Notes under the pieces: generated by a model
What the model was told of the DNA's origin: nothing
The model's input: the letters and a program-made list of their open reading frames with translations, nothing else
Databases searched by the model: none
Shown here: positions 1 through 5,736 of the stretch, piece by piece
Layout of the letters: every line of letters begins with the position of its first letter
Numbering within the stretch: the first letter of the stretch is position 1
Origin: Desulfobacteraceae bacterium
GTDB lineage: Bacteria > Desulfobacterota > DSM-4660 > Desulfatiglandales > Desulfatiglandaceae
NCBI GenBank assembly: GCA_020349865.1
Contig: CP070700.1
Coordinates: 524,587-530,493, forward strand
DNA length: 5,907 nt
Direction: 5' to 3'
Program-made: the position numbers and the translations under genes

Positions 1-917
1 GCCCAAGCCCTGCCCGTTTTCAGTTTCCTCTTCCTGATTTCATCAAATTCTCCCTTTCGCCAATCTGGAATCTTTTCCTCGTTCATAAGCCAAAGATGCT
101 TGGTCCCTTTAAGGCATTCTTCTCCCTTTTTCATCAACATCTTATGTTCTTGACGTCTCACCTTATCCAGAGCCTCTGTCACTTGGCGGACTACATGAAA
201 ACGGTCAAAGACGATCTTTCCCTCCGCACCAGGTACAAGATCTTTCGTGGCAGCAATGTAGGGATCCCACATGTCCATAGCGATAGCTTTAATCCCTTTC
301 AACTCTTCCTTAGAAAACTGACCATAGTAGCCTTCAAGACTATCTTGCCCCCTGTCTTCAAGAACGCATTCCACTGTACCACCGCGCAGGTCACAGACCA
401 ATGTCTCATAGCGATGTCTCCTGGTAAAAGATTTCTCATCAATACCAAGGTAGTCCGGAACTACGCATTTCTTCCTGCTAAGGCCCCTTTCAACAGCCTT
501 CTCCATGATGTTCCAGGCTTCGTACCAGCTTGTGTCCGTCAGATGATTGGTCCCCGTCACATCGCACTCCATCAGTGTATCAATTACCCGGTTCTCAAAG
601 AGCAAGGTAAATCGACTCCCAGGCTCAGCCCAAGGAGCCGGGACTTGTCTCACATCATGCTTGGGACATTTAACCCGGGGCAAACGGCAATGAATATAGG
701 TTCCAAACTGGCATGTATTGAGATGGCGCCATACTCGTTCTTCGCTGTGATCATAGACGGATGCTTTCTTTTCACATTCGGGGCAGTTCCATTTTATGCC
801 GGAATAATCTTCTATCCAGACATCCACTCGGCCAGCATCAGGATCAAGCTCAACCTTTGTTACTCTCCAAGGGTCACAGAGTCCAAGCAACGCTTCATAA
901 AATTCTGTGTCTCGCAT
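1..917 (-). CDS. ISL3-family transposase, N-terminal 305 residues (runs off left edge)
   Basis: This is a DDE transposase that would cut and join the ends of the surrounding insertion sequence. The open frame reads from ATG at 917 through 305 codons to position 1 with no stop. It begins MRDTEFYEALLGLCDPWRV, a typical ISL3 start. An N-terminal zinc-binding region shows CPEC (C45, C48) and CPKH (C84, H87). The helix-turn-helix-like linker contains WAEPGSRFT (about residues 96-104). The catalytic core has the first acidic residue in GIDEKSF (D160) and the second in AIAMDMWDPY (D215), followed by VFDRFHVVR and the family motif KGTKHLWL. The third catalytic Glu and the C-terminus lie beyond the window. 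The ATG at 917 was chosen because AAAGAGG (930-924) is six bases upstream; an in-frame ATG at 923 overlaps that site. No frameshift or stop is seen, so the visible part looks intact. Confidence 0.93.
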   Translation of the reverse strand, partial: MRDTEFYEALLGLCDPWRVTKVELDPDAGRVDVWIEDYSGIKWNCPECEKKASVYDHSEERVWRHLNTCQFGTYIHCRLPRVKCPKHDVRQVPAPWAEPGSRFTLLFENRVIDTLMECDVTGTNHLTDTSWYEAWNIMEKAVERGLSRKKCVVPDYLGIDEKSFTRRHRYETLVCDLRGGTVECVLEDRGQDSLEGYYGQFSKEELKGIKAIAMDMWDPYIAATKDLVPGAEGKIVFDRFHVVRQVTEALDKVRRQEHKMLMKKGEECLKGTKHLWLMNEEKIPDWRKGEFDEIRKRKLKTGRAW

Positions 918-1049: not shown

Positions 1050-2303
1050 ATGGAAGATAAACTTCGATGTTATGATAAGGTGATTCAACTTATTAATAAA
1101 GGTGTTGATATCCCCAACCCGTTTAGCATAGATCTGGGCGATGAAGTCAAGATTGACCAGATATCCGGGAATGGCGTAAAGATTTATCCCGGGTGCAGGA
1201 TCTATGGTGAACACACTGTCATATCCGGAGGTTCACAGATTGGTTATGAAGGTCCGGTTACTGTAGATAACTGCCAGTTAGGTCCCAATGTCGTTCTGAA
1301 GGGCGGTTATTTTAATAATTCCGTCTTTCTCGAAAAAGCGAACATGGGATCAAGCGCACAGGTGCGGGAAGGCTGTATCCTTGAAGAAGAGGCTAACGGT
1401 GCACATTGTGTGGGTTTAAAACAGACCATACTTTTCCCTTTTGTGACGCTTGGCAGTCTTATCAACTTCTGTGATTGTATGATGGCCGGCGGCACAAGCC
1501 GAAAGGATCACAGCGAGGTGGGCAGCTCTTATATACACTTCAATTTTACACCTGATGGGGATAAAACAACGGCATCATTGATTGGAGATGTGCCGAGGGG
1601 TGTCATGCTTAATCAGCCTGCTATTTTTTTAGGAGGCCAAGGTGGCATTGTAGGCCCTTTACGCATGGGATACGGTAATATTGTTGCTGCCAACTCTATT
1701 CTGCGGAATGATTTTATTGAGGACAATAAATTGATAGTTGGGAAGACACACTCTGGAAAGACAATGAATTACAGGCCAAGGGCCTATCCTGTCTTTCGTC
1801 GTATTCTGGAAAATAATATAATTTATCTTGCTAATCTGATAGCCCTCGAGGAGTGGTACATCAATGTGAGGCGCCCATTTTTTGATACGCAGGAATTAGG
1901 TCGGCTTGTCTTTGACGGATCGCTTGATAAACTGGCACTTGCGAAGAAAGAACGATTGAAGCGTTTAAAGATCTTGGCTGAAAAAGTGAAGATACCATTT
2001 GAAGATGATGAAAAGTCAAATACTAAAACAAAAGGGAGAAACGAGTTCTCCTTGAAGTATTCAGAAATAGAAGGTCTCTTTTCGGGAGCTATGAAAAATA
2101 GTGATATAGACAGATACCGTGATGTTTTTCTCTCTGATTACGAAAACTCAAGGATTAATAACGGATCCGATTATATAGCAGTCATACAGGGTCTTCCTTC
2201 TCAGGTTTCTCAAAAGGGAACGACATGGCTTCAGGGGATCATAGACGCATTTTGTGAAAAGACAAAGGAAATTGTACCATTATTAAAACTGTTCGCCAAA
2301 TGA
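1050..2303 (+). CDS. left-handed beta-helix (hexapeptide-repeat) protein, GlmU acetyltransferase-like, no uridylyltransferase domain
   Basis: The 417-residue product has three parts. A short N-terminal segment (1-30) resembles the linker before hexapeptide domains in sugar-phosphate acyltransferases. A long left-handed beta-helix follows (about 33-230), with repeats such as VKIYPGCRI, TVDNCQLGPNVVLKGG, NSVFLEKANMG, AQVREGCILEEEA and GPLRMGYGNIVAANSIL. The charged, mostly helical C-terminal region (about 245-417) has no motif I recognise. The conserved HCVGLKQTILFPFVTLGSLINFCD stretch lies at about 119-142. Bifunctional GlmU (about 450 aa) begins with a GxGTRM-type uridylyltransferase domain, which is absent here. 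Proteins of this build are often named UDP-GlcNAc pyrophosphorylase-like, but uridylyl transfer is not supported. Acetylation of GlcN-1-P, or simply a sugar-nucleotide-binding role, is an inference from the fold and from the downstream GlmM. The start is supported by GGGAG (1039-1043) six bases before ATG. It begins 33 bases beyond the ISL3 end. Confidence 0.75.
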   Translation: MEDKLRCYDKVIQLINKGVDIPNPFSIDLGDEVKIDQISGNGVKIYPGCRIYGEHTVISGGSQIGYEGPVTVDNCQLGPNVVLKGGYFNNSVFLEKANMGSSAQVREGCILEEEANGAHCVGLKQTILFPFVTLGSLINFCDCMMAGGTSRKDHSEVGSSYIHFNFTPDGDKTTASLIGDVPRGVMLNQPAIFLGGQGGIVGPLRMGYGNIVAANSILRNDFIEDNKLIVGKTHSGKTMNYRPRAYPVFRRILENNIIYLANLIALEEWYINVRRPFFDTQELGRLVFDGSLDKLALAKKERLKRLKILAEKVKIPFEDDEKSNTKTKGRNEFSLKYSEIEGLFSGAMKNSDIDRYRDVFLSDYENSRINNGSDYIAVIQGLPSQVSQKGTTWLQGIIDAFCEKTKEIVPLLKLFAK

Positions 2304-2384
2304 GTTTTTTGTATTATTGAAATCTTTTTACTTGTGCGTGACCTGTACTGAATTACGGGCATAATAAGTTGACAGATACATTTT

Positions 2385-2392
2385 AAAGGAGG
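2385..2392 (+). promoter_or_regulatory. strong ribosome binding site for glmM
   Basis: AAAGGAGG lies seven bases upstream of the ATG at 2400, a near-perfect Shine-Dalgarno sequence that fixes the glmM start. It is the strongest such site among the genes in this window. Confidence 0.8.
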
Positions 2393-2399
2393 AATCTAT

Positions 2400-3749
2400 A
2401 TGGGTAAATTATTTGGCACTGACGGAGTCCGAGGAGAAGCAAACCGATATCCAATGAACGCTGAAATTGCCTTCGCCATAGGGCAGGCAGTTGTCTATAT
2501 CATGAAAAATGCGCGTTCACATCCCAGGGTAGTGATCGGGAAAGACACTCGCATATCGGGCTATATGCTTGAAAGCTCCCTTGAGTCAGGCATAACCTCG
2601 ATGGGGGGGAATCCTTATCTGCTCGGTGTTCTGCCTACACCCGGGATCGCTTTTGCCGCCCAGAGCATGCGCGCCGACGCGGGGATTGTAATTTCTGCTT
2701 CTCACAATCCCTACCAGGACAACGGTATAAAAATTTTTTCAGGTACCGGCTTTAAGCTGTCTGATGAGCAGGAGGACGCTATCGAGGACCTGATGCTGAG
2801 CAACACGCTTCATGAACTCGTGCCGCCTGTCAAGGACATGGGTCAGGCATTCCGTTTGGATGACGTAAATGGTCGTTATATTGTATTCCTTAAAAACTCA
2901 TTTCCCAGGGATCTCTCCATTGAAGGGATGAAGATAGTTCTGGATACCGCCAATGGCGCCACCTATAAAGTCGCCCCGGCCGCTTTCTGGGAGCTGGGAG
3001 CCAAGACAGAGATTATCCATAATTCTCCAAATGGCATCAACATAAACGATAAGTGCGGTTCCCAGCATACAGAGGACCTTAGAAAAAAGGTTGTCGAAAG
3101 CGGCGCTTCGATCGGGCTTGCCTTTGACGGTGATGGTGACCGCCTGATCGCGGTAGATGAAAAAGGACAGGAAATAACTGGTGATCAAATTCTGCTCATA
3201 TGCGCGAACACACTTAAAGAACAGGGGAAATTAGAGAATGACCTTCTTGTAAGTACTGTTATGAGCAACCTGGGATTAAGGGTTGCCTGTAAGAAATATG
3301 GTTTCAAACATCACGCCTCCAAGGTGGGAGACCGTTATGTCCTTGAGGATATGTTGAAATTGGGAGGGGTGATAGGCGGTGAAGAATCGGGCCACATGAT
3401 TTTTCTTAATAAGCACACAACAGGTGACGGAATTATTACTGCGCTGCAACTGCTTGCCGCCATGGTCAGGTCGGGCAAGCCCCTTTCGGAACTTGCCCGA
3501 ATGATGGACATTTATCCCCAGAAATTAATAAATGTGGATGTGAAGAGCAAACCTGAAATCAATACGGTGCCGCAGGTTATGGAGGTAATAGAGAAGGTCG
3601 ATAAGGAATTAGGCGAAGAGGGCCGGGTTCTTGTACGCTATTCCGGAACCCAGAACATGTGCAGGGTAATGGTTGAGGGTCCATCGAAATCTGTGACGGA
3701 AAAATATTGCGAAGAGATTGCAGACGTTGTAAAACGCGCTCTTGGCTGA
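2400..3749 (+). CDS. glmM: phosphoglucosamine mutase
   Basis: GlmM interconverts glucosamine-6-phosphate and glucosamine-1-phosphate in the cytoplasm, the step that commits hexosamine to UDP-GlcNAc for peptidoglycan and surface polysaccharide. The 449-residue length is typical of bacterial GlmM. The N-terminus MGKLFGTDGVRGEAN is diagnostic. The phosphoserine loop is ISASHNPYQDNGIKIF, with the catalytic Ser at 101. The Mg-binding loop is DGDGDR (D243, D245, D247). The sugar-binding loop is GEESGH (327-332). The phosphate-binding loop near the C-terminus is RYSGTQNMCRVMVEGP (413-428). All four active-site loops are present and in order, so the enzyme should be functional. GlmM is normally activated by phosphorylation of the active Ser. 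The gene is 96 bases after the beta-helix gene and 25 bases before the deaminase gene, with no clear terminator on either side, so cotranscription is likely. Confidence 0.97.
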   Translation: MGKLFGTDGVRGEANRYPMNAEIAFAIGQAVVYIMKNARSHPRVVIGKDTRISGYMLESSLESGITSMGGNPYLLGVLPTPGIAFAAQSMRADAGIVISASHNPYQDNGIKIFSGTGFKLSDEQEDAIEDLMLSNTLHELVPPVKDMGQAFRLDDVNGRYIVFLKNSFPRDLSIEGMKIVLDTANGATYKVAPAAFWELGAKTEIIHNSPNGININDKCGSQHTEDLRKKVVESGASIGLAFDGDGDRLIAVDEKGQEITGDQILLICANTLKEQGKLENDLLVSTVMSNLGLRVACKKYGFKHHASKVGDRYVLEDMLKLGGVIGGEESGHMIFLNKHTTGDGIITALQLLAAMVRSGKPLSELARMMDIYPQKLINVDVKSKPEINTVPQVMEVIEKVDKELGEEGRVLVRYSGTQNMCRVMVEGPSKSVTEKYCEEIADVVKRALG

Positions 3750-3764
3750 AAAAATTTTTAAAAC

Positions 3765-3770
3765 GGAGGG
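3765..3770 (+). promoter_or_regulatory. ribosome binding site that fixes the nagB-like start
   Basis: GGAGGG... type site (CGGAGGG, with GGAGGG at 3765-3770) lies four bases before ATG 3775. An in-frame TTG at 3742, overlapping the end of glmM, would add eleven residues but has no ribosome binding site, and the added residues do not resemble a NagB N-terminus. The ATG at 3775 is therefore preferred. Confidence 0.75.
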
Positions 3771-3774
3771 AAAT

Positions 3775-4734
3775 ATGCCCATTAAGGTATTCATAACAAA
3801 TGACTTTGAACATATGAGCAAGGTTGCTGCGGACATTGTAAAAAAGAGACTCATTAAAATATTCAAAACAAAAAAGGAGATTGTACTGGGGCTCGCCACT
3901 GGAAACTCACCCACAGGCATGTACAAACATCTGGCACAGGCGGCTAATGACGGTGAGTTTGACAGTGGACGCATCAGAAGCTTTAACCTCGATGAGTATG
4001 TGGGGCTTCCCGGTGAGAATGTTCAGCAACGTGTTAGTCATCCGGAAAGTTACTGCTTTTTTATGATTCAAGAATTTTTCGGCCTTCTGAAGAAGAAATT
4101 CATTGAAACAAATGTTCCCTTCGGATCGTTGATTGATCAAAAGACTTTGATAAGTGAACTTAAAAAATATCCCATGGATTGGGCATACAAAGGCATAGAC
4201 GCAGGAAAGGCTATAGCCATAAAACAAAAGGCCCAATCAGAATATCTTAAGTGGATAAAAAAGGATATCCTTTACAGATACGTGCAGAAAATAAAAAAAT
4301 CCGGAGGTATTGACCTCCAGATAATAGGTGTTGGAGGTAGAGGTCATGTGGCATTTCACGAATCAGGAATACCCTTTAGGGGAAGTTCGGTTATGCTCGT
4401 TAAACTTGACAATAACACCATTAAGAACTCCGTGACAGACGGGCATTTTCCTTCGGTTAAAGAGTGCCCCAATTACGCCATTTCAATGGGTGCGGAGCTT
4501 GTTTATAAAGCAGGAACCGTGGTTCTGCTGGCAAATGGAGAGAGGAAAATCGAATCCGTTACACGATCCCTTCTGGAGTATGTGACCCTGGAAGTACCCA
4601 TCTCATATGGACAAGAATATGCCAACAATGGCGGCAATCTGATATATGTACTCGATAAGATAGCAGGTAGGAACTTACTTACCCAGAAGGGCAAGCTTAA
4701 AGAAAAAAAGATAAAGGTTGAGAACCTGACATAA
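3775..4734 (+). CDS. glucosamine-6-phosphate deaminase/isomerase family protein (NagB-like, divergent)
   Basis: NagB-family enzymes reversibly convert glucosamine-6-phosphate to fructose-6-phosphate plus ammonia. This 319-residue protein has the family landmarks in order: the phosphate loop LGLATGNSPTGMY (38-50), the catalytic-Asp motif SFNLDEYVGLP (69-79, D73 matching E. coli D72), HPESYCFFM (89-97), and GVGGRGHVAFHESG (185-198). The His and Glu of that last motif are kept (H191, E196, matching E. coli H143 and E148). Where E. coli has D141 and other members Asn, this protein has R189. It is about 50 residues longer than E. coli NagB (266 aa), mainly through an extension after GLP (about 80-88) and a Lys-rich insert between about 105 and 178. 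A charged Lys-rich tail ends the protein. The gene follows glmM by 25 bases, which suggests a biosynthetic or salvage role coupled to GlmM. The family assignment is firm; retained deaminase activity is uncertain. Confidence 0.85.
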   Translation: MPIKVFITNDFEHMSKVAADIVKKRLIKIFKTKKEIVLGLATGNSPTGMYKHLAQAANDGEFDSGRIRSFNLDEYVGLPGENVQQRVSHPESYCFFMIQEFFGLLKKKFIETNVPFGSLIDQKTLISELKKYPMDWAYKGIDAGKAIAIKQKAQSEYLKWIKKDILYRYVQKIKKSGGIDLQIIGVGGRGHVAFHESGIPFRGSSVMLVKLDNNTIKNSVTDGHFPSVKECPNYAISMGAELVYKAGTVVLLANGERKIESVTRSLLEYVTLEVPISYGQEYANNGGNLIYVLDKIAGRNLLTQKGKLKEKKIKVENLT

Positions 4735-4836: not shown

Positions 4837-5736
4837 TTATTCAAACTCCTCAGATTCTTCGGTGGGATAGAAAAGATGGTAACTATCTTCCTTGATCTTC
4901 TCAAGGTCTTCGTGAAGGAGGCAATTTTCCGCCCTTAATCTGAATTCCCTGGCACTCCTTTCCATGGCATCGATCTTCTCATTTATACCATATTCTCTTA
5001 AAAGCTTCTTTATCGTGTGAAAAATATCATCACTTCCAAAGAGCAGAGTGCCCTCGTGTAATATCTTGCATGCCACCATGTGTTTAAATGTATCAAACTT
5101 CACCTGCTCTTTTACACGGGAAATATCCTTTACCATATAATCTATCTCTTCCTTTATATATGGATTTAACAGAAGGCTGTATTTTTCCTTATAGATTTCC
5201 TCATCGAGTCTGCCTCTCTGTCTTTCAGGAAACTGACCATCCACTATCACCACAATATCCATATCAGATCCCTTTACCATCTTTCCCGTGCTTCTTTCAG
5301 GACGTGGGACATCATTGGCCATATTAAAAACAATATCACCGGCTATTATGAAACAGATCCTCTGCTGTAAATCATACTCGAACCGGTCCATGAGGGAAGA
5401 CACAATATTATATGCCAGATCGGATTTGGTCCTGCTTATCCTCTCAATATTTTCTTCTATCTCCATGGCCTTGCTCTCAATCGGACCAGGATCATTTGTT
5501 AGACCGATTATGGAATAGGTTAGAAACTCCCTCAAAATAGAAGGGGACAGACGTGCATAACCCTCTATGTTTCTATCAAAACGCAAATATCTGGTCCCAA
5601 CTATCTTTATGAACAATTTATCGGACAATCTACAAGCCCGTAAAAGCAGAAGAGGGTCACCACCGAAAACCTTCACCAGTTCGGAACCTGTAATGGGACC
5701 TTTGTCCTTTATTATATCAATAATCCCGTCTTCCAT
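4837..5736 (-). CDS. nucleotidyltransferase-fold protein with N-terminal winged-helix-like domain, function unknown
   Basis: The 299-residue soluble protein has two recognisable parts. Residues 1-55 (IIDIIKDKGPITGSELVKVF, then a short helix and a strand pair ending GTRYLRFDR) look like a winged helix-turn-helix. Residues about 125-240 look like a Pol-beta/MNT-type nucleotidyltransferase domain. There the strand FIIAGDIVFN leads to GSDMDIVVIV, giving the metal-binding Asp pair D158 and D160; a possible third Asp is in EEIDYMV (D199). ACKILHEGTLLFGSDDI (222-238) matches the small helix-plus-strand that follows this core in related proteins. The C-terminus is helical and very acidic (EESEEFE). 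Between G133 and the DxD motif there is an unusually long loop. No toxin-antitoxin partner, CRISPR or defence gene is adjacent in the window. It reads convergently with the amino-sugar genes, from its own promoter at 5808-5836. The ATG at 5736 has AAAGAGAT (5750-5743) six bases upstream. Nucleotidyl transfer is inferred from motifs; the substrate is unknown. Confidence 0.8.
   Translation of the reverse strand: MEDGIIDIIKDKGPITGSELVKVFGGDPLLLLRACRLSDKLFIKIVGTRYLRFDRNIEGYARLSPSILREFLTYSIIGLTNDPGPIESKAMEIEENIERISRTKSDLAYNIVSSLMDRFEYDLQQRICFIIAGDIVFNMANDVPRPERSTGKMVKGSDMDIVVIVDGQFPERQRGRLDEEIYKEKYSLLLNPYIKEEIDYMVKDISRVKEQVKFDTFKHMVACKILHEGTLLFGSDDIFHTIKKLLREYGINEKIDAMERSAREFRLRAENCLLHEDLEKIKEDSYHLFYPTEESEEFE

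What the first reader, a model, noticed from the sequence alone, without database searches (positions are those of the whole stretch)
1050..4734. Possible alternative hexosamine pathway: GlmU-like beta-helix, GlmM and a NagB homologue in one operon
The three genes share one strand, have 96- and 25-base gaps and no clear terminators between them. GlmM is biosynthetic, whereas NagB is usually found with nagA/nagE for GlcNAc breakdown. Pairing NagB with GlmM and a GlmU acetyltransferase-like protein suggests either that NagB runs in the aminating direction (Fru-6-P + NH3 to GlcN-6-P), replacing GlmS, or that the set balances hexosamine flux. NagB reversibility is established for the family; the operon role here is inference.
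Basis: partly seen in the sequence, partly recalled or inferred. Interest (0 to 1): 0.7.

Follow-up and report, generated by a model that had tools for sequence, protein, structure and literature searches.

The report
Conserved cell-wall sugar operon with NagB
Three neighbouring genes here belong to a widely conserved cluster that probably supplies the amino-sugar building block of the cell wall; the odd one, a NagB-type enzyme usually used to break amino sugars down, mostly sits in genomes that already have the normal enzyme for making them, so it more likely balances the pathway than replaces that enzyme.

Summary
In detail: a GlmU-acetyltransferase-like protein ('LbH', 1050-2303), GlmM (2400-3749) and a NagB-family protein (3775-4734) share one strand with gaps of 96 and 25 bases. 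The order is conserved: contiguous in 36 of 66 related loci, often beside GlmS, YvcK/GlmR, RapZ, NrpR or glutamate dehydrogenase genes. In 50 of those 66 genomes full-length GlmU is rare (8 of 50) and NagA over cut-off rarer (2 of 50, 11 more at 179-224 bits), so a UDP-GlcNAc-supplying role is supported. 'NagB replaces GlmS' is not supported for these relatives: 26 of 50 have canonical GlmS, 21 of 50 a ~1250-aa GlmS-like protein, none both, 3 neither. Best reading: a split-GlmU hexosamine operon in which NagB opposes or tunes GlmS. The window's own genome is not held, so its GlmS status is unknown.

The parts
1050..2303 (+). LbH protein, 417 aa: GlmU-acetyltransferase-like beta-helix (about residues 10-241) plus a predicted helical C-terminal part
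   Evidence: TIGR01173 47.4 bits over profile 243-445 only; profile comparison with 6 full-length GlmUs 98.7%, E 2.7e-16; predicted model has helices at 249-408 but its core 114-239 is mostly below pLDDT 50
2400..3749 (+). GlmM, phosphoglucosamine mutase, 449 aa
   Evidence: TIGR01455 583.8 bits against cut-off 447.55; four PGM_PMM Pfam domains
3775..4734 (+). NagB-family protein, 319 aa, with an extra stretch of about 40-50 residues and Arg where E. coli NagB has Asp141 (number recalled)
4837..5736 (-). Nucleotidyltransferase-domain protein (NTP_transf_2), 299 aa; a recurrent neighbour of the module, here on the opposite strand
   Evidence: PF01909 24.2 bits, cut-off 21; homologue on the + strand in 18 of 66 loci

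Best explanation
The three genes are the core of a conserved operon that supplies UDP-GlcNAc. GlmS (canonical or the ~1250-aa form, elsewhere or in the same cluster) makes GlcN-6-P from Fru-6-P and glutamine. GlmM turns it into GlcN-1-P. The LbH protein is, or works with, the GlcN-1-P N-acetyltransferase in organisms whose GlmU lacks its acetyltransferase half, and a stand-alone or truncated GlmU uridylyltransferase (or another one) makes UDP-GlcNAc. The NagB-family protein acts on the same GlcN-6-P/Fru-6-P pool as a counter-valve to GlmS (net deamination when hexosamine is in excess), perhaps reversibly when ammonium is high. Shown: homology, gene order, neighbours, co-occurrence in relatives. 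Inferred: LbH activity, NagB activity and direction, co-transcription, and that the window's organism has a GlmS.
For: Order contiguous in 36 of 66 loci. Canonical GlmS directly after NagB in L037, L038, L041, L043; giant GlmS in the same cluster in several Syntrophales-type loci such as L014, L015, L020, L023. YvcK- and RapZ-family genes beside LbH in L001, YvcK in L030 and L054; in B. subtilis GlmR (YvcK) stimulates GlmS and YvcJ is a RapZ homologue (PMC7525490, abstract and outline). GlmS of one kind or the other in 47 of 50 tested relatives and in 16 of 16 LbH-positive genomes of a 118-genome sample. GlmU acetyltransferase half missing: full GlmU in 8 of 50, and over cut-off in 2 of 16 LbH-positive against 55 of 102 LbH-negative genomes (Fisher p 0.0024, relatedness ignored). 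LbH aligns with the whole GlmU acetyltransferase half. No NagA above 51 bits in 33 of the 41 tested genomes with this NagB type. GlmS and NagB act in opposite directions in S. mutans (PMC3306399, abstract and outline).
Against: No activity is shown for LbH or this NagB. The catalytic His of GlmU aligns with invariant H154 but with F140 (a profile that held one wrong sequence). 8 of 50 genomes have LbH and also full-length GlmU, and 21 of 102 LbH-negative genomes have a GlmU match limited to the N-terminal part, so LbH and GlmU loss are not strictly tied. NagB is absent from 8 of 50 LbH genomes, and a ninth, G048, has only an ordinary NagB, so it is dispensable. Asp141 of NagB is replaced by R, H or K in 32 of 32. 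GlmS of the window's own genome was not found or excluded. 3 of 50 relatives and the module-type-NagB genomes G060 and G134 show no GlmS.
Confidence: 0.55

Rival explanations
1. One reading: NagB runs in the aminating direction (Fru-6-P + NH4+ to GlcN-6-P) and replaces or backs up GlmS; glutamate dehydrogenase and NrpR neighbours would tie it to nitrogen supply.
For: G081 (3.4-Mb contig with N-runs) and G118 have acetyltransferase-GlmM-NagB in a row, near glutamate dehydrogenase, and no GlmS (0 of 2). G060 and G134 have GlmM followed by the window's NagB type, no LbH and no GlmS detected. In a 118-genome sample NagB was found in 4 of 13 genomes without a GlmS match at 1e-50 and in 5 of 105 with one (Fisher p 0.008, relatedness ignored). 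Giardia lacks GlmS and uses its NagB anabolically (PMC4281351, passages and introduction).
Against: GlmS or the GlmS-like giant is present in 47 of 50 tested module genomes and 16 of 16 LbH-positive genomes of the sample. G060 and G134 are fragmented and G060's GlmU runs into a contig end. G081/G118 NagB is a different, ordinary type. Two of the 13 (G152, G128) have long GlmS-like frames below the threshold. Akkermansia, without GlmS, has a NagB that is unlikely to aminate under physiological conditions and the organism needs amino sugar (PMC5902328, passages and section 7).
Confidence: 0.2
2. This NagB subfamily has changed function: a phosphosugar-binding regulator of GlmS/GlmM, or an isomerase/deaminase for another amino sugar, rather than a GlcN-6-P deaminase.
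For: Separate supported clade (34 rows, 97/94), below the NagB equivalog cut-off, an extra 40-50 residues, basic residue at the Asp141 position in 32 of 32.
Against: The Asp72, His143, Glu148 and Lys208 equivalents are kept in 32 of 32. The Asp141 position is Asn in the solved B. subtilis deaminase and Glu or Asn in other NagB-family proteins fetched here. The fold matches solved NagBs closely.
Confidence: 0.2
3. Ordinary GlcNAc catabolism or accidental neighbourhood: NagB belongs to a breakdown pathway and merely lies next to GlmM.
For: NagB is catabolic in most organisms (PMC4281351 introduction).
Against: Conserved contiguous order in 36 of 66 loci. NagA over cut-off in 2 of 50 genomes, 11 more at 179-224 bits. 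G016 has a separate NagB-like gene right next to its NagA-like gene in addition to the module NagB.
Confidence: 0.04

Closest known systems
Canonical bacterial UDP-GlcNAc pathway (GlmS, GlmM, bifunctional GlmU)
   Same: GlmM is an ordinary member; GlmS is present in 47 of 50 relatives if the giant form counts
   Different: GlmU acetyltransferase half missing in most tested relatives (full in 8 of 50), with a GlmU-acetyltransferase-like LbH protein and a NagB in the GlmM operon
Glucosamine-6-phosphate deaminase NagB (monomeric and hexameric types)
   Different: Below the equivalog cut-off, extra 40-50 residues, basic residue at the Asp141 position, linked to GlmM instead of NagA
Anabolic NagB of Giardia (GlcN6P from Fru6P and ammonia; PMC4281351, passages and introduction seen)
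   Same: NagB placed in a biosynthetic route
   Different: Giardia lacks GlmS; most tested module genomes have one. Direction of this NagB is untested
Archaeal-type bifunctional GlmU (TIGR03992), acetyltransferase half
   Same: In G081 and G061 a stand-alone protein like this half stands right before GlmM, with a NagB-family gene after it, the same layout as the window
   Different: A different acetyltransferase family from LbH: TIGR03992 was not among the window LbH's hits
GlmR/YvcK - YvcJ/RapZ control of GlmS in B. subtilis and E. coli (PMC7525490, abstract and outline; PMC7073468, listing only)
   Same: YvcK- and RapZ-family genes lie beside the operon in L001; YvcK in L030 and L054
   Different: Here the neighbours vary by lineage (NrpR, YvcK, RapZ or none seen) and no regulation has been shown

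Membership tests
GlmM (phosphoglucosamine mutase) | Score over the curated TIGR01455 cut-off | tested here: met
   583.8 vs 447.55 bits
NagB (glucosamine-6-phosphate deaminase) | Glucosamine_iso domain PF01182 over cut-off | tested here: met
   35.7 vs 27 bits
NagB (glucosamine-6-phosphate deaminase) | NagB equivalog TIGR00502 over cut-off | tested here: not met
   141.9 vs 236.9 bits, matched in two stretches because of the insertion. So it is filed as NagB-family, not as a NagB equivalog
NagB (glucosamine-6-phosphate deaminase) | Active-site Asp72, His143, Glu148 (E. coli numbers recalled) | tested here: met
   32 of 32 module NagBs at the aligned positions
NagB (glucosamine-6-phosphate deaminase) | Active-site Asp141 (E. 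coli number recalled) | tested here: not met
   R 29, H 2, K 1 of 32; R 119, W 1 of 120 listed homologues. The position also varies in other NagB-family proteins
NagB (glucosamine-6-phosphate deaminase) | Interconversion of GlcN-6-P and Fru-6-P | not testable with these tools
   needs an enzyme assay
GlmU (bifunctional) | Uridylyltransferase half plus acetyltransferase half, TIGR01173 over cut-off | tested here: not met
   47.4 vs 366.85 bits, only profile 243-445 matched
GlmU acetyltransferase half | Homology over the whole acetyltransferase half | tested here: met
   LbH 10-241 against GlmU 250-456, 98.7%, E 2.7e-16
GlmU acetyltransferase half | Catalytic His (E. coli His363, number recalled) | tested here: inconclusive
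   Aligned with invariant H154, with F140; the model core is mostly below pLDDT 50
GlmS (for the ~1250-aa neighbour in relatives, not in the window) | TIGR01135 over cut-off | tested here: not met
   233.0 (L015) and 224.1 (L002) vs 418.05 bits
GlmS (for the ~1250-aa neighbour in relatives, not in the window) | Catalytic residues of glutaminase and isomerase domains (15 sites, numbers recalled) | tested here: met
   14 of 15 sites identical in 38 of 38 rows (6 rows repeat a gene), the 15th (Ser347) Thr in 37 of 38

The most novel reading that the evidence does not exclude
Some anaerobic bacteria make GlcN-6-P from Fru-6-P and ammonium with a NagB wired into an acetyltransferase-GlmM-NagB biosynthetic operon, without GlmS (the G081/G118 family, perhaps G060/G134), and the window's NagB subfamily is a dedicated form of this ammonia-fed entry that also works beside GlmS as a nitrogen-dependent backup.
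Probability: 0.2. Interest if true: 0.8.

Novelty: new variant of a known kind. Interest (0 to 1): 0.52.

Why it matters
UDP-GlcNAc supply is essential for bacterial cell walls and is usually described as one textbook route. Here a large, mostly uncultured group appears to have rearranged it: GlmU split or truncated, a GlmU-acetyltransferase-like protein without a Pfam family, a NagB subfamily built into the operon, and in 21 of 50 tested genomes an unusually long GlmS-like protein with a probable propeptide. Each part can be tested by expression in E. coli K-12. If a lineage such as G081/G118 really uses NagB as its only GlcN-6-P source, the general rule that walled bacteria need GlmS or salvaged amino sugar would have a clear exception.

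Tried and rejected
Own-genome search: no genome is held for the window. I then looked for the window's contig by its length (4,985,782, shown for P0001) in the protein-search tables for canonical GlmS and for the giant. It is in neither list of the best 120; with capped lists this shows neither presence nor absence.

NagB as a dead enzyme because of the Asp141 change: rejected as too strong, since the position varies in other NagB-family proteins.

LbH fold search: not done, because residues 114-239 of the model are mostly below pLDDT 50. First LbH-GlmU profile comparison held one out-of-frame sequence (G035); repeated without it. In one search the extracted frames for G039 and G043 are also out of frame, so their truncation rests on the search table. 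Six truncated GlmUs were inspected in that alignment (G008, G009, G034, G036, G037, G049); all six lack the stretch with the catalytic His.

Known structured RNA such as a glmS ribozyme: none over the gathering score in window, L001, L002, L015 or L043 except a tRNA in L001. Papers: eight searches on NagB/GlmS direction, Syntrophus or Smithella with hexosamine genes, monofunctional acetyltransferase, NrpR in Deltaproteobacteria, glmS-nagB-glmM operons, propeptide in GlmS, and GlmS absence. I saw no title or abstract on this operon, but the lists were cut (20 of 38, 15 of 93, 12 of 24, 8 of 51) and most subscription journals are not held.

Bias: searches were given 50 of the 66 genomes, preferring those with GlmM or NagB near LbH; 16 were left out. 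The 66 loci come from patterns of the window's own LbH, so near relatives are over-represented. MAGs are incomplete; completeness was not told. Fisher tests ignore relatedness.
Full report
What is in the window. An ISL3-family transposase fragment (3-914, minus), a GlmU-acetyltransferase-like protein (here LbH, 1050-2303), GlmM (2400-3749), a NagB-family protein (3775-4734) and a nucleotidyltransferase-domain protein (4837-5736, minus). GlmM passes its curated cut-off. LbH has no Pfam match and matches GlmU models only over the acetyltransferase half. The NagB-family protein passes the Pfam cut-off but not the NagB equivalog cut-off.

Conservation. A scan of bacterial and archaeal genomes with LbH gave 66 loci, mostly labelled deltaproteobacterial, with 9 labelled as Actinomycetota of some kind. 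In 36 of 66 the three genes are contiguous on one strand with gaps under 400 bp (in L010, L026 and L035 the NagB is matched in pieces or cut); in 15 of 66 LbH and GlmM are contiguous without NagB next (two of these contigs end within 250 bases); in 15 of 66 GlmM is not next to LbH (two of these contigs end within 100 bases). In even samples LbH was found in 16 of 118 genomes of G015's phylum and 2 of 100 of G043's phylum, each count including the centre genome.

Neighbours. In Syntrophales-type loci such as L015 the order is giant GlmS, NrpR-type regulator, LbH, GlmM, NagB, PyrG. In L021, L027, L045 and L066 a glutamate dehydrogenase lies between NrpR and LbH (L021 by Pfam; the others by near-identical sequence starts). 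In L037, L038, L041 and L043 (Actinomycetota-labelled MAGs) a canonical GlmS follows NagB. In L016 and L018 GlmS and a truncated GlmU lie divergently upstream. In L001, the locus whose LbH is most like the window's, a RapZ homologue and a long CofD/YvcK-family protein lie divergently upstream; L030 and L054 carry a shorter CofD/YvcK-family protein. In B. subtilis GlmR (YvcK) stimulates GlmS and YvcJ is a RapZ homologue (PMC7525490, abstract and outline); Listeria GlmR is reported as an accessory uridyltransferase (PMC10128056, abstract and outline).

Is GlmS missing in relatives? In 50 of the 66 source genomes, 26 have canonical GlmS over cut-off and 21 have the ~1250-aa GlmS-like protein, five of them (G019, G024, G026, G028, G042) only as pieces. 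None has both; 3 (G025, G047, G050) show neither. The giant keeps 14 of 15 GlmS catalytic sites identical in 38 of 38 aligned rows (6 rows repeat a gene) and Thr for Ser347 in 37 of 38, with 24-121 residues before the nucleophile Cys when the farthest start is taken; since GlmS needs an N-terminal Cys (recalled), propeptide removal is inferred. In the phylum sample 16 of 16 LbH-positive genomes have a GlmS (6 canonical, 10 giant) and all 10 frames of 1242 aa or more are in LbH-positive genomes; shorter long frames of 1163, 1163, 1170 and 1058 aa occur in LbH-negative G055, G092, G152 and G128. So in these relatives NagB accompanies GlmS.

GlmU and NagA. Of the 50 genomes, 8 have full-length GlmU (G004 with one internal stop), 13 a GlmU match that stops at model position 322-369, 18 a match to the uridylyltransferase half only, 7 only a weak 94-107-bit match and 4 none of these. 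Six truncated copies inspected lack the catalytic-His stretch. In the phylum sample GlmU is over cut-off in 2 of 16 LbH-positive and 55 of 102 LbH-negative genomes; 21 of the 102 have an N-terminal match only, 6 a C-terminal piece only, 20 no match at 1e-50. That fits LbH as the missing acetyltransferase but does not prove it. NagA is over cut-off in 2 of 50 and at 179-224 bits in 11 more; 33 of the 41 genomes with module-type NagB have no NagA match above 51 bits.

The NagB subfamily. It forms a supported clade (34 rows, 97/94), has an extra 40-50 residues and carries R, H or K at the Asp141 position in 32 of 32, while the Asp72, His143, Glu148 and Lys208 equivalents are kept; of 120 listed homologues 119 have R and one W. 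The model is confident and close to solved NagBs. Because the Asp141 position varies elsewhere in the family, inactivity is not implied.

LbH. Residues 10-241 align with the GlmU acetyltransferase half (98.7%, E 2.7e-16). R106, K124, N165 and K172 align with an Arg, Lys, Asn and Lys of GlmU that I take (recalled) for R333, K351, N386 and K392; the catalytic His aligns with invariant H154 but with F140. A predicted helical part follows.

In the phylum sample 13 of 118 genomes had no GlmS match at 1e-50; two of these, G152 and G128, have long GlmS-like frames. NagB was found in 4 of the 13 and 5 of the other 105. G081 (3.4-Mb contig; two 100-base N-runs in the 16 kb fetched) and G118, the two held members of their family, have no GlmS (0 of 2). 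Both carry in a row a GlmU-acetyltransferase-like protein, GlmM and an ordinary NagB, near a glutamate dehydrogenase homologue. For G081 the first is a stand-alone archaeal-type GlmU acetyltransferase half (TIGR03992 155.3 bits), NagB is over its cut-off (264.9 vs 236.9 bits) and glutamine synthetase is close by. G060 and G134 carry the window's NagB type right after GlmM, without LbH or detected GlmS, and nest inside the module clade beside L051, but both assemblies are fragmented and G060's GlmU runs into a contig end. One NagB is known to be anabolic (Giardia, PMC4281351, passages and introduction) and one was judged unlikely to aminate in the cell (Akkermansia, PMC5902328, passages and section 7).

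Verdict. A real, conserved operon that most likely supplies UDP-GlcNAc. My odds: pathway role 0.9; LbH as acetyltransferase 0.65; NagB as counter-valve or tuner of GlmS 0.5; NagB as GlmS replacement in the window's own organism 0.2. The window's own GlmS status is unknown.

Noticed in passing
L015:5045-8779 (+), L002:5605-9465 (-); 21 of 50 genomes: A ~1250-aa GlmS-like family with conserved catalytic residues, a probable propeptide before the nucleophile Cys and about 200 extra C-terminal residues; never found together with canonical GlmS in the 50 genomes.
   Followed up: partly
L108 (G081) and L109 (G118): GlmU-acetyltransferase-like protein, GlmM, ordinary NagB and a glutamate dehydrogenase homologue clustered in two genomes without detectable GlmS.
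   Followed up: partly
window 4837-5736 (-): Nucleotidyltransferase-domain protein whose homologue lies on the + strand in 18 of 66 loci, mostly just downstream of GlmM or NagB; in the window it is on the opposite strand.
   Followed up: partly
window 3-914 (-): ISL3-family transposase fragment directly upstream of the operon; in L001 the same place holds YvcK- and RapZ-family genes.
   Followed up: no
L015:8879-9928 and similar loci (L014, L020, L021, L023, L026, L027, L032): An NrpR-domain regulator (PF01995, 277.9 bits in L015) in bacterial hexosamine clusters, with glutamate dehydrogenase next to it in L021, L027, L045 and L066, suggests a nitrogen-sensing link.
   Followed up: partly
L111:3207-7317 (G061): Archaeal-type GlmU acetyltransferase half, GlmM, YvcK-like and NagB-like genes in a row, in a genome with canonical GlmS elsewhere.
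   Followed up: no
L104 (G036): GlmU that has lost the acetyltransferase coils with the catalytic-His stretch by an internal deletion but keeps its C-terminal end.
   Followed up: no
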